From Candidatus Poribacteria bacterium (GTDB lineage Bacteria; Poribacteria; WGA-4E; WGA-3G): DNA of 46,031 bases. Position numbers and translations under genes: made by a program. Under the pieces are notes generated by a model, which saw only the letters and a program-made list of their open reading frames with translations, did no database searches and was not told the origin of the DNA. The stretch is from positions 1 through 46,031 of the forward strand of contig JAJEIE010000030.1 in NCBI GenBank assembly GCA_022827625.1. The letters run 5' to 3'. This document shows, piece after piece, positions 1-33,228 of the stretch. Every line of letters starts with the position of its first letter. Within the stretch, counting starts at the first letter, position 1.

Positions 1-663
1 CTTCTCACCCGTGTTGAGTGTGAGAAAAGCGTCTTTCATGCCGGATTTGGTCTGGGAATAGACCAAATCCATTCCTTGTATTACATTGTCTGCGCCTACA
101 CTTTCACCCGTAGCAGGCAGCACTTCTTTCGAGGTATCATCGGTCGCGACATAAAGCCAATACGTGCCAACACGGTCGCGAAGGATTTGAAGATACCCGA
201 CGTTTCCTTTCCATTTCCGGTGCTGATGGAAAGCGAACCAACGCTTATCAAACTTGTTGAACTTTTCAGATACAGGATTCCATTGCCAAAAGGAAATACG
301 GACACGTCCCTCTTCAAGTTTGTAGCCTGATTGGAACTTCGCAGAATGGTAGCGTCCTTTGCGTTTGTATTTCGGTTTGCCCGTTCCCGCGATATTGAAA
401 AAGCGTTCCCATGCGATGTGCAGTCGGATAATCACAGCGTCAAGGGTATCGCGGGGTATCCATGCCCAGTGTTGCTTGCTTCGCTTCAACAACTTCGTCA
501 AGTGCGGTTGCAAGCGATAGCGTCCGGCATATTTACCATAAATGCGATAGTAGCGGTTCTCCAAGGCAAGAAAGTGGTTGTGGACATCGCAAAGGTCATC
601 GAGCATGTTGCCCAAACGCTTGTTCTTCGGATGTTCGCGTATCTGATATTTATAAGTTCTCAT
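1..663 (-). CDS. tnpB: TnpB-like nuclease (IS200/IS605 OrfB family), C-terminal part beyond window edge
   Basis: The frame is open from an ATG at 661-663 to the window edge without a stop, giving 221 residues of a longer protein. The N-terminus (MRTYKYQIREHPKN), the Tyr/Trp/Arg-rich middle and the segment ending SVGAD then GMKDAFLTL match the TnpB layout, in which the first RuvC motif reads roughly G-x-D-x-G. TnpB is the RNA-guided nuclease of IS200/IS605-type elements. No tnpA is visible. Oddity: fifteen codons separate Asp192 from the Gly expected just after it, and this stretch holds a perfect 11-bp inverted repeat (43-53 and 60-70). Family assignment is fairly sure; activity cannot be judged because the end is missing and RuvC-I may be disrupted. 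Confidence 0.82.
   Translation of the reverse strand, partial: MRTYKYQIREHPKNKRLGNMLDDLCDVHNHFLALENRYYRIYGKYAGRYRLQPHLTKLLKRSKQHWAWIPRDTLDAVIIRLHIAWERFFNIAGTGKPKYKRKGRYHSAKFQSGYKLEEGRVRISFWQWNPVSEKFNKFDKRWFAFHQHRKWKGNVGYLQILRDRVGTYWLYVATDDTSKEVLPATGESVGADNVIQGMDLVYSQTKSGMKDAFLTLNTGEK
43..70. repeat. Perfect 11-bp inverted repeat inside tnpB
   Basis: GGATTTGGTCT, a 6-nt spacer, then its exact reverse complement AGACCAAATCC. It lies in frame within the coding sequence, directly after the codon for the presumed first catalytic Asp of TnpB, and contributes most of an apparent 15-codon extra segment. Confidence 0.8.
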
Positions 664-1486: not shown

Positions 1487-2362
1487 ATGCTACACACAAA
1501 CAAAGCAGCAATTGACATGGACTGGCACCCACTCTCTGACGAAGAGATACGCCATTTTGATGACACAGGCTACCTCATCGTCCGAAATGTGCTGGATTCG
1601 GATACCATCGACAAACTCATTGAAGCAAGCGACCGGTTGATGGTAAGCGACCGACGCGAGAACCGCCAACACAACTCCAACAACCGATACGATAGCTTCC
1701 GAAACTGCATCTCCATTGACGATGCCTTCATTCCACTGCTCACACAGAAGACGATTCTCCCTGTTGTCGTCCAACTCCTCGGTGCACACCTGCAACTGAT
1801 GACCTCACACCTGATATACAAACACCCAGATCCACCGGACACACCCGATACCGCCCGCGCACCGGGATGGCACCGCGACTACGGCATGGCAACAAAAACA
1901 CACGGCAACAAGCTACCACGCATTCTGCTAAAATGTGCCTACTATTTCACCGATCTGAGTGAACCCAATTCCGGCGCAACGCTTGTCGCTCCCGGTAGCA
2001 ATCATCTCCTTGAACGGATTCCCATTCCAGAAGGACACACAGATCCAGAAAATGCACTCGAACCGAGTTTAAAACCCGGAGATTGTCTGCTGTTTGAGAA
2101 TCGTATCTTTCATGCGGGGGGTGCGAACTTAACCGACCAGACCCGTAAAGGTGTGATGTTCGGCTACGGTTACCGTTGGGTGATGCCGATGGATTATCGG
2201 ACCCAAGAACAGAACTTGTTGGACAAACTATCACCACTCGAGCAGTATCTGGTCGGTGAACCTTTTAAGAAAACGAAAGAGTATCATCCGGGCGGTGGTG
2301 AAAGTCCACTCGCATCGTGGTGCGAACAACACGGTGCTCCAGCGGTGAGACCTACCTATTAG
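1487..2362 (+). CDS. Phytanoyl-CoA dioxygenase (PhyH) family Fe(II)/2-oxoglutarate oxygenase
   Basis: A 291-residue protein with the PhyH double-stranded beta-helix layout. It opens with the usual 'F-x-x-x-G-Y-L-I-V-R-N-V-L' segment (residues ~24-36). The iron facial triad appears intact: His129 and Asp131 in GWHRDYG and His209 in RIFHAGG, with Arg220 placed to bind 2-oxoglutarate. Such proteins hydroxylate small substrates using O2 and 2-oxoglutarate; the substrate here cannot be read from sequence, and a true phytanoyl-CoA role is not implied. AGGAG lies ~10 bases before the ATG. It converges with the next PhyH gene, with a palindromic repeat between them. Confidence 0.88.
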   Translation: MLHTNKAAIDMDWHPLSDEEIRHFDDTGYLIVRNVLDSDTIDKLIEASDRLMVSDRRENRQHNSNNRYDSFRNCISIDDAFIPLLTQKTILPVVVQLLGAHLQLMTSHLIYKHPDPPDTPDTARAPGWHRDYGMATKTHGNKLPRILLKCAYYFTDLSEPNSGATLVAPGSNHLLERIPIPEGHTDPENALEPSLKPGDCLLFENRIFHAGGANLTDQTRKGVMFGYGYRWVMPMDYRTQEQNLLDKLSPLEQYLVGEPFKKTKEYHPGGGESPLASWCEQHGAPAVRPTY

Positions 2363-2414: not shown

Positions 2415-3224
2415 TTACGTCAACCTAATAACATCCTTTTTAACGATCTCCTTCGTGTCAAAGTGACCCGCCTGGGAGATGAGTTCCAACGTTTCCGGTG
2501 ACAATCGTCCTCTAACCTCCTCCGACACCCGACTCTCACCACGATGCTGTGGTCTGTAGCGTAAGGTTAGGACACAACGGTACCGATCTTTCGGTTTCCA
2601 AGGCAGCGCACCGTGCGTCAAGAGTTCAGAGATAATCACGAAATCTCCCGCTTTCGGCGTGATGTTAACAACCCCTTCTGGCACATCAGCGGCATCCTTA
2701 ATCTTCCCACTGTGATAGAGGTGTTCAGGACGATCGAAAACAGTTTTGTGTGTGCCGGGAACAACCAGCAACCCACCATCTCCGGGGTTCACATCGTACA
2801 GATACGGAAAGACGACAAAATCGTCACAAAAGATGCGACCGTTTCGGACCTCATAACGATTGGCATGCCATCCAAAATCCTCTCGCGCGCAATGCAAGCG
2901 TAAGCCTTCCGCCGATTCCGATACCCCTGCCCGATCCGCAATCATCGTTCCACGGAACAGTTGTGGTCTGTTATTCGTCAACTCCTTGATGATTGGCCAG
3001 GTAGCTCGGTGCAGTGTGAGTGCTTCTAAGGGTTTCGCAAAGGCAAAACCGTTTGGAAGGTTTTTTTCGCTGGAGTCAAATCCGGGAGGGAGTTTCTCGG
3101 TAGGGGTATTGATATATTCCTCTGCTGCTGCTTGTGCCGCTCTCAACTCTGCGTCGCTCATAACATTCTTTAGGTGAAGGTATCCTGTAACATCAAAAAG
3201 ATAACGCTGTTCAGGGGTCATCAT
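2415..3224 (-). CDS. PhyH-family protein with atypical metal-site motif
   Basis: A 269-residue protein of the phytanoyl-CoA dioxygenase fold, starting with RYLFDVTGYLHLKNV, the family's N-terminal signature. The central strand DVNPGDGGLLVVPGTHK and the distal LLTHGALPW (His204), followed by basic residues (Arg214/Arg216), are as expected. However, where the family has H-x-D, this protein reads GWHANRYEVRNG (His120, Ala, Asn122), so the canonical acidic iron ligand is missing or moved. It may belong to a divergent PhyH subfamily with a different ligand set, or may not be an iron oxygenase. AAGGA lies before the start. Two adjacent ATGs make the start uncertain by one codon. Confidence 0.82.
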   Translation of the reverse strand: MMTPEQRYLFDVTGYLHLKNVMSDAELRAAQAAAEEYINTPTEKLPPGFDSSEKNLPNGFAFAKPLEALTLHRATWPIIKELTNNRPQLFRGTMIADRAGVSESAEGLRLHCAREDFGWHANRYEVRNGRIFCDDFVVFPYLYDVNPGDGGLLVVPGTHKTVFDRPEHLYHSGKIKDAADVPEGVVNITPKAGDFVIISELLTHGALPWKPKDRYRCVLTLRYRPQHRGESRVSEEVRGRLSPETLELISQAGHFDTKEIVKKDVIRLT

Positions 3225-33137: not shown

Positions 33138-33228
33138 TAGGACTTACGCAATTCCCTGGTAGGTGCGGTTTCTAACCGCACCGATCGCCTGATAAATAGC
33201 GGAATTTCGCAATTTTGCGTAAGCCCTG
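33138..33228. mobile_element. MITE-like element in the TonB receptor leader
   Basis: Starts TAGGACTTACGCAATTCC and ends GGAATTTCGCAA...TTGCGTAAGCCCT, so the ends form near-perfect inverted repeats. It is ~91 bp, has no gene, and contains a nested REP-like palindrome GTAGGTGCGGTT/AACCGCACC at 33159-33185. A related element lies at 33520-33571. Confidence 0.6.

What the first reader, a model, noticed from the sequence alone, without database searches (positions are those of the whole stretch)
1..120. Palindrome-bearing 15-codon segment within the RuvC-I motif of TnpB
The family motif expected as G-A-D-x-G-M-K-D-A-F-L is split: GAD is followed by NVIQGMDLVYSQTKS before GMKDAFLTL. The extra DNA carries a perfect 11-bp inverted repeat and keeps the frame. 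This resembles in-frame palindromic insertions known from Rickettsia palindromic elements, but at a catalytic Asp. It may inactivate TnpB or mark a spreading micro-element.
Basis: partly seen in the sequence, partly recalled or inferred. Interest (0 to 1): 0.6.

Follow-up and report, generated by a model that had tools for sequence, protein, structure and literature searches.

The report
Micro-element invading TnpB's catalytic motif
In sponge-dwelling Poribacteria a 45-letter piece of repetitive DNA that can fold into a hairpin has landed, in frame and at exactly the same codon beside a catalytic residue, in several separate copies of a DNA-cutting enzyme gene, and the same piece sits between genes elsewhere in these genomes.

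Summary
Window 43-87 (minus strand) is a 45-nt element, AATGTAATACAAGG-nnn plus an 11-bp hairpin with a 6-nt loop, between the RuvC-I Asp codon (88-90) and GMKD of a TnpB cut by the contig end. It replaces the Phe codon TTC, so the net gain is 42 nt (14 codons). Empty alleles (GAD-F-GMKD) exist in the same genome and in complete chromosomes; the cleanest pair (two TnpB copies on one chromosome) has no other difference for 90 nt upstream and 164 nt downstream. The element is dispersed (36 of 38 genomes of this Candidatus Poribacteria genus), mostly outside genes, often in REP-like hairpins, and in each context where I found an empty counterpart it replaces a TTN triplet. Filled TnpBs: 23 places in 10 of 38 genomes, on backgrounds that do not form one clade; the insert never differs synonymously, while flanking codons differ in 32-43% of comparisons. 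Hairpin pairs covary. Best explanation: a non-autonomous mobile palindromic micro-element, like Rickettsia palindromic elements in habit, but 45 nt, triplet-replacing and recurrent at one catalytic codon. The mobilising enzyme and the effect on TnpB are unknown; AlphaFold was uninformative there.

The parts
1..663 (-). N-terminal 221 codons of an IS200/IS605-type TnpB (RNA-guided endonuclease family), cut by the contig end
   Evidence: ORF; NCBIfam guided_TnpB E 5.5e-10, below the curated cut-off (partial protein); 89% and 86-88% identical copies at C22, C14, C41 of the same genome; full-length relatives match Pfam OrfB_IS605 and Cas12f1-like_TNB
43..87 (-). the 45-nt palindromic micro-element, translated as NVIQGMDLVYSQTKS
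   Evidence: left part found 14 times exactly in the genome, each time 3 nt before a palindrome copy; ends defined against empty alleles
43..53 (.). palindrome arm 1 (3' arm in gene orientation)
   Evidence: covariation
60..70 (.). palindrome arm 2 (5' arm in gene orientation)
   Evidence: covariation
71..87 (-). conserved unpaired left part AATGTAATACAAGGAAT of the element
   Evidence: first 14 positions invariant in all 15 copies of alignment A5; 14 of 14 exact own-genome occurrences lie next to the palindrome
88..90 (-). GAC codon of the RuvC-I Asp (G-A-D), directly before the insertion
   Evidence: D203 invariant in 22 of 22 aligned relatives, filled and empty; its role as the RuvC-I catalytic Asp follows from the TnpB family (recalled)
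31..42 (-). GGC ATG AAA GAC (G-M-K-D), directly after the insertion; in empty copies it follows GAC-TTC/TTT

Best explanation
The segment is one copy of a non-autonomous mobile palindromic micro-element of a Poribacteria genus. Shown: the unit has fixed ends (AATG...AAATCC, 45 nt), a covarying hairpin, many dispersed copies, and in every context with a found empty counterpart it stands in place of a TTN triplet, net +42 nt. Shown: in TnpB it stands in place of the Phe codon between the RuvC-I Asp and GMKD, and filled and empty copies alternate on the TnpB trees. Inferred: it moves as a folded DNA strand by an enzyme acting in trans, is tolerated in tnpB because 42 is a multiple of three and the strand used has an open frame, and gained this position more than once (at least one G-type and one A-type founder), with later spread among tnpB copies by IS copying and recombination. 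Inferred: the 15 extra residues are translated; they most likely disturb or weaken DNA cleavage while leaving the rest of TnpB, including RNA binding, in place.
For: Dispersed: 16 places in own genome, control 0; AATGTAATACAAGG in 36 of 38 genomes of the genus, and one single match each in 2 of the 59 other genomes searched, about what chance gives for a 14-mer (chance is my estimate). Empty/filled: C14, C41, C9 empty and C22, C23, C27, C28 filled in the own genome; on one complete chromosome (OX639973.1) two TnpB copies differ at the site only by the replacement, with 90 nt left and 164 nt right identical. TTN rule: GGTTCGG-TTT-CCTAACCGAACC (nearly all listed rows; exceptions one TTG, which still is TTN, and one ATT), CCCGAATTTA-TTC-GGG 3 of 4, CCCGAACAAG-TTC 4 of 4, CACACGCGCA-TTC 1 of 1, GTAGGGGTTGGG-TTA 1 of 1, self-nesting at GGA-TTT-AGTC, TnpB TTC/TTT in 110 of 113 (TAT in 3). 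Recurrence: label 'filled' needs 7 changes on the N-part tree and 5 on the C-part tree, at least 3 forced by starred branches in each; 23 filled places include one with the A-type insert typical of the dispersed copies (G030:C44) among otherwise G-type inserts. Insert 0 of 2010 same-residue codon comparisons differ, against 476 of 1474 left and 619 of 1455 right. Palindrome kept: 4 of 11 pairs with compensatory changes, 0 of 500 shuffles.
Against: No transposition was observed and no mobilising enzyme was identified. Beyond TTN the target contexts share no sequence I can see, so specificity is unexplained. Most contexts are themselves repeat families, so many dispersed copies may have spread with their host repeat rather than by their own movement. 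In TnpB 22 of 23 places carry the G-type, which is rare elsewhere (3 of 47 contexts), so many filled TnpBs may descend from one founder. C-part sequences are exchanged between TnpB families, which makes gene conversion possible. Tree support near the tips is mostly under 95.
Confidence: 0.72

Rival explanations
1. A single insertion in one tnpB, spread to other tnpB copies by gene conversion or recombination of the RuvC half, with no further insertions at this codon.
For: 22 of 23 filled places share the G-type insert, rare among dispersed copies. Family A and B TnpBs, deeply split in the N part, are intermixed in the C part, so exchange near the site happens. The two filled lineages in the own genome share an identical stretch of 141 nt.
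Against: For the filled copy of OX639973.1 the nearest empty copy matches 90 nt left and 164 nt right, while no other filled haplotype held matches more than 6 nt left together with its right side; for L064 and L175 the best other filled copy matches only 3 nt left. Tracts that short are not expected from ordinary homologous conversion. The A-type insert at G030:C44 needs a separate event or a later conversion of the insert itself.
Confidence: 0.2
2. A homing-like process specific for tnpB: an RNA-guided nuclease, perhaps TnpB itself, cuts empty tnpB next to TTC and the filled copy is used for repair.
For: TnpB is a homing-type enzyme in IS elements (recalled; PMC8612924 seen as search listing only). 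Loss of TTN would remove a TAM-like triplet. A TnpB-specific insert subtype exists.
Against: None of 53 IS right ends held is followed by a guide with the RuvC-I sequence. The same TTN replacement happens in REPs that have no link to TnpB. No co-converted flanks at OX639973.1.
Confidence: 0.05
3. A normal, selected feature of some TnpBs (a loop with its own function), whose DNA happens to resemble a repeat.
For: Same residues in TnpBs only about 45% identical over the N part; filled copies under purifying selection.
Against: The sequence is shared with non-coding copies; all nucleotides including synonymous sites are identical; the diverged G021 copy keeps the palindrome by paired changes while the peptide changes to GMNLIYPQIKF; empty sister copies exist.
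Confidence: 0.05
4. Assembly artefact at a contig end.
For: The window copy lies at a contig end.
Against: Same junctions inside complete single-contig genomes: G005, G010, G021, G028 and the main contig of G017.
Confidence: 0.01

Closest known systems
Rickettsia palindromic elements (RPEs; passages read in PMC10969869 and PMC4316617)
   Same: Short palindromic repeat found between genes and also inside coding genes in frame, encoding a peptide.
   Different: RPEs are about 100-150 nt, in about ten families and in many unrelated genes (as stated in the passages); this one is 45 nt, in Poribacteria, replaces a triplet, and the only in-gene target I established is one codon of tnpB.
REPs / RAYT (TnpA-REP) systems and BIMEs (PMC3733652, PMC8266576, PMC2817692: search listing only)
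   Same: Short hairpin repeats, mosaic and nested, in genomes that carry Y1 transposases (37 of 38 genomes).
   Different: The element has no GTAG foot (sequence); it sits inside such REPs. Y1 presence does not track it: G032 and G036 have Y1 genes but no copy, G012 has 14 copies and no Y1 found.
IS elements that target REPs, e.g. IS1397, IS621 (passages read in PMC1525189)
   Same: Site-specific insertion into palindromic REP sequences.
   Different: Those are full IS elements with a transposase; this is 45 nt without a gene and replaces three bases.
Mitochondrial byp elements and T4 gene 60 bypass (recalled, no call)
   Same: Hairpin-bearing insertions of similar size inside coding genes.
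   Different: No matching take-off and landing codons here (sequence), and the frame stays open without bypass.

Membership tests
Rickettsia palindromic elements | Palindromic repeat inserted in frame into a coding gene | tested here: met
Rickettsia palindromic elements | Length about 100-150 nt | tested here: not met
   45 nt, and 72 nt for the longer variant; RPE length from PMC4316617 passage
Rickettsia palindromic elements | Insertion into many unrelated genes | tested here: inconclusive
   Of 10 dispersed own-genome copies none clearly interrupts a gene; L030 lies in frame just before a Beta-lactamase (PF00144) domain. No genus-wide test in other genes was made.
Rickettsia palindromic elements | Sequence similarity to an RPE family | not tested
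   No RPE sequences were fetched
GTAG-REP mobilised by RAYT | GTAG (or similar) tetranucleotide at the hairpin foot | tested here: not met
   Sequence of 15 aligned copies has no GTAG
GTAG-REP mobilised by RAYT | Cognate RAYT gene flanked by the repeat | tested here: inconclusive
   None of 4 Y1 loci fetched carries the element; L025 and L167 have a Y1 gene within about 1 kb of a copy
Active TnpB RNA-guided nuclease | RuvC Asp, Glu, Asp and C-terminal zinc-ribbon/TNB domain | tested here: met
   D203, E302, D382 invariant in 22 of 22; Cas12f1-like_TNB in 3 of 3 proteins scanned, two filled and one empty. Window copy itself is cut before the C-terminal half.
Active TnpB RNA-guided nuclease | Intact RuvC-I geometry | tested here: inconclusive
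   AlphaFold pLDDT under 50 across RuvC-I in both filled (194-235) and empty (190-222) models
Active TnpB RNA-guided nuclease | RNA-guided DNA cleavage | not testable with these tools
   needs biochemistry
MITE derived from a transposon | Terminal inverted repeats and target duplication | tested here: not met
   Palindrome at one side only; empty/filled comparison shows replacement of TTN, no duplication

The most novel reading that the evidence does not exclude
A genus-specific, gene-less homing micro-element that specifically and repeatedly colonises the catalytic motif of RNA-guided nucleases of IS200/IS605 elements, turning them in one step into full-length proteins with an altered RuvC-I, and that moves by an undescribed triplet-replacing insertion (TTN out, 45 or 72 nt in).
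Probability: 0.25. Interest if true: 0.85.

Novelty: new variant of a known kind. Interest (0 to 1): 0.62.

Why it matters
It gives a clean natural system of filled and empty alleles, on the same chromosomes, for a tiny palindromic element that enters protein-coding DNA. Precise ends and a triplet-for-element swap point to a dedicated enzyme rather than random repeat growth, and the hosts are tractable by sequence alone. It also creates natural TnpB variants with 14 extra codons next to a catalytic Asp, which can be assayed directly for loss or change of RNA-guided cutting, and bears on the old question of how in-frame palindromic elements move and why genes tolerate them.

Tried and rejected
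A replacement catalytic Asp supplied by the insert (GMD): the G021 copy has GMN there, so it is not required, though that copy may be inactive. Translational bypass: codons 42 or 45 nt apart across the insert do not match (read from the sequence). Translation as a conserved functional peptide: see rivals. Rfam: no family over the element or its contexts in 6 sources (only two tRNAs in L026). IMG/VR viral contigs: 0 matches to the element pattern. Y1 transposase as the discriminating partner: present in 37 of 38 genomes including two without the element. Guide-RNA homing: no supporting guide among 53 right ends. AlphaFold comparison: uninformative at RuvC-I in both models, so no structure search was made. 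One search was a mis-spaced pattern of mine (0 hits even in the own genome) and is not evidence; one search repeats it correctly. One search failed in the script; one search replaces it. In some searches, 33 of 85 ORF hits were dropped before alignment: mostly antisense ORFs, plus L056 and two distant TnpBs (L010, L011); four partial own-genome copies were added, giving 56 rows. Literature: searches in the held open-access library listed nothing on this element; listings were cut at 8-15 titles, and subscription journals are mostly not held, so this is weak evidence of absence.

Full report
Observation. The minus-strand ORF at window 663..1 encodes the N-terminal part of a TnpB and contains GAD-NVIQGMDLVYSQTKS-GMKD. 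The DNA of the insert holds an 11-bp perfect inverted repeat with a 6-nt loop at 43-70. The full unit is 45 nt, window 43-87. The window copy is unique in the window. The ORF stops at the contig edge because the assembly breaks at this repeat: 141 nt are shared with the end of contig C22 and 133 nt with the ends of C27 and C28. Which N-terminal part belongs to which C-terminal part in this genome is therefore unknown; C27 carries a complete C-terminal half, C28 a TnpB frame of only 74 codons.

The organism.

Filled and empty alleles. In the own genome, relatives on C14, C41 and C9 read GCAGAC-TTC-GGY, whereas C22, C23, C27 and C28 read GCAGAC-[45 nt]-GGC. Across 38 genomes of the genus there are 113 empty-type places (pattern with a free middle codon; TTC or TTT in 110, TAT in 3) in 29 genomes, and 23 filled places in 10 genomes, four of which are the contig ends just named. 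On the complete chromosome OX639973.1 (G005) a filled and an empty copy differ by a few percent overall but not at all for 90 nt before and 164 nt after the site. The filled copy has an open frame of 403 codons. This is a clean replacement of TTC by the unit, and no assembly artefact.

A dispersed unit. The palindrome occurs at 16 places in the own genome at up to 3 mismatches, against 0 for the reversed control. Its left part AATGTAATACAAGG occurs 14 times exactly, each time 3 nt before a palindrome copy; 4 of the 14 are the TnpB contig ends and 10 are elsewhere. The two remaining palindromes carry a longer left part and belong to a 72-nt variant with the same two ends. The 14-mer is present in 36 of 38 genomes of the genus and once each in 2 of the other 59 genomes searched, which is about chance. 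The copies whose surroundings I read lie mostly in short or no open frames, often in loops or arms of REP-like hairpins, and sometimes inside another copy of themselves. One own-genome copy (L030) lies in frame 16 codons before a Beta-lactamase domain and may be leader or N-terminal extension.

A triplet-replacing insertion. For each context with a recognisable empty form the unit stands in place of a TTN: GGTTCGG-TTT-CCTAACCGAACC (27 of 38 genomes; of the rows listed one has TTG and one ATT in the middle, the rest TTT; the list was cut), CCCGAATTTA-TTC-GGG (3 of 4 in held loci), CCCGAACAAG-TTC (4 of 4), CACACGCGCA-TTC-GGCGTTG (1 of 1), GTAGGGGTTGGG-TTA (1 of 1), and itself at GGA-TTT-AGTC. 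For the GTTTTTGC context no empty form was found in held loci (none); one search shows similar strings with TTG, which is only suggestive. The bases on both sides of TTN are otherwise not alike between contexts.

Recurrence in tnpB. In an alignment of 56 TnpBs (14 filled, 42 empty) the filled label needs 7 changes on the tree of the part before the insertion and 5 on the tree of the part after it; starred branches alone force at least 3 in each. These counts cannot tell gains from losses, and exchange between TnpB copies is evident: the deep split of two families in the N part vanishes in the C part. Among 18 distinct filled haplotypes, 17 have no synonymous difference in the insert in 2010 codon comparisons, while the same comparison gives 476 of 1474 in the 45 nt before and 619 of 1455 in the 36 nt after. 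The insert is thus much younger than its surroundings, or is constantly renewed. One haplotype (G021) has a diverged insert in which the palindrome is kept by paired changes although the peptide alters. One TnpB (G030:C44) has the A-type insert usual elsewhere; the other 22 of 23 have G at that position, a type found in 3 of 47 non-TnpB contexts held (contexts chosen by my fetches, not at random). For the OX639973.1 copy no other filled haplotype held matches more than 6 nt on the left at its best, and for L064 and L175 only 3. I read this as several insertions plus spread among tnpB copies; the share of each is open.

Constraint. In 15 aligned copies (14 distinct) 4 of the 11 pairs show changes on both sides, with 0 of 500 shuffles as high, and sliding the partner removes the signal. 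Copies were chosen partly to include known variants, so this shows that paired change occurs, not how often. Filled TnpB pairs have dN/dS of 0.11 (L098 and L099, two genomes, dS 0.33), 0.18 (L152 and L151; L152 and L089), 0.27 (L151 and L089, dS 0.07) and 0.18 (L150 and L155); L153 and L154 are too alike to use. Empty pairs give 0.09-0.18. If the insertion predates these splits, filled TnpBs are still selected as proteins; if it is younger, the figure says nothing about the filled state.

Function of filled TnpB. The RuvC Asp, Glu and Asp are invariant in 22 of 22 relatives, and the Pfam OrfB_IS605 match starts later in filled (224, 213) than in empty (187) proteins. AlphaFold gave pLDDT under 50 across RuvC-I with or without the insert, so the structural effect is undecided. 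Disturbed cleavage is my expectation from the position next to the catalytic Asp, not a result.

What it is. The habit - short palindrome, intergenic and in-gene, in frame - is that of Rickettsia palindromic elements (PMC10969869 and PMC4316617, passages read), but the length differs and no sequence comparison with them was made. It is nested in GTAG-type REPs: in the G029 and G004 genomes Y1 genes lie among such REPs (places). It lacks a GTAG foot itself. I file it as a new variant of the known kind 'short mobile palindromic element', with an unknown mobilising enzyme.

Noticed in passing
L024, L027, L165-L168: A 72-nt relative with the same two ends but a longer, separately palindromic middle (TTGTCCCGCAAGTCCACACGCGACTTGCGCTAY) occupies the same REP contexts.
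   Followed up: partly
TnpB families: Two TnpB families only about 45% identical in the N-terminal part are intermixed in the RuvC half, which suggests swapping of N-terminal lobes.
   Followed up: partly
G029:C343:26755-27814 and G004:C72:52415-53313: Y1 transposase (RAYT-like) genes lie among several GTAG-REP copies GGTTCGGTTTCCTAACCGAACC.
   Followed up: no
L025 (G000:C24), element 1482-1526: A Y1 transposase gene lies about 1 kb from a copy of the element.
   Followed up: partly
L030:1460-1504: A copy lies in frame 16 codons before a Beta-lactamase (PF00144) domain in a 404-codon frame; leader or N-terminal extension.
   Followed up: partly
window 33162-33182: An unfilled REP palindrome GGTGCGG-TTT-CTAACCGCACC.
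   Followed up: no
window 1487-2362 and 2415-3224: Two neighbouring ORFs on opposite strands that look like phytanoyl-CoA dioxygenase relatives (recalled impression, no domain search).
   Followed up: no
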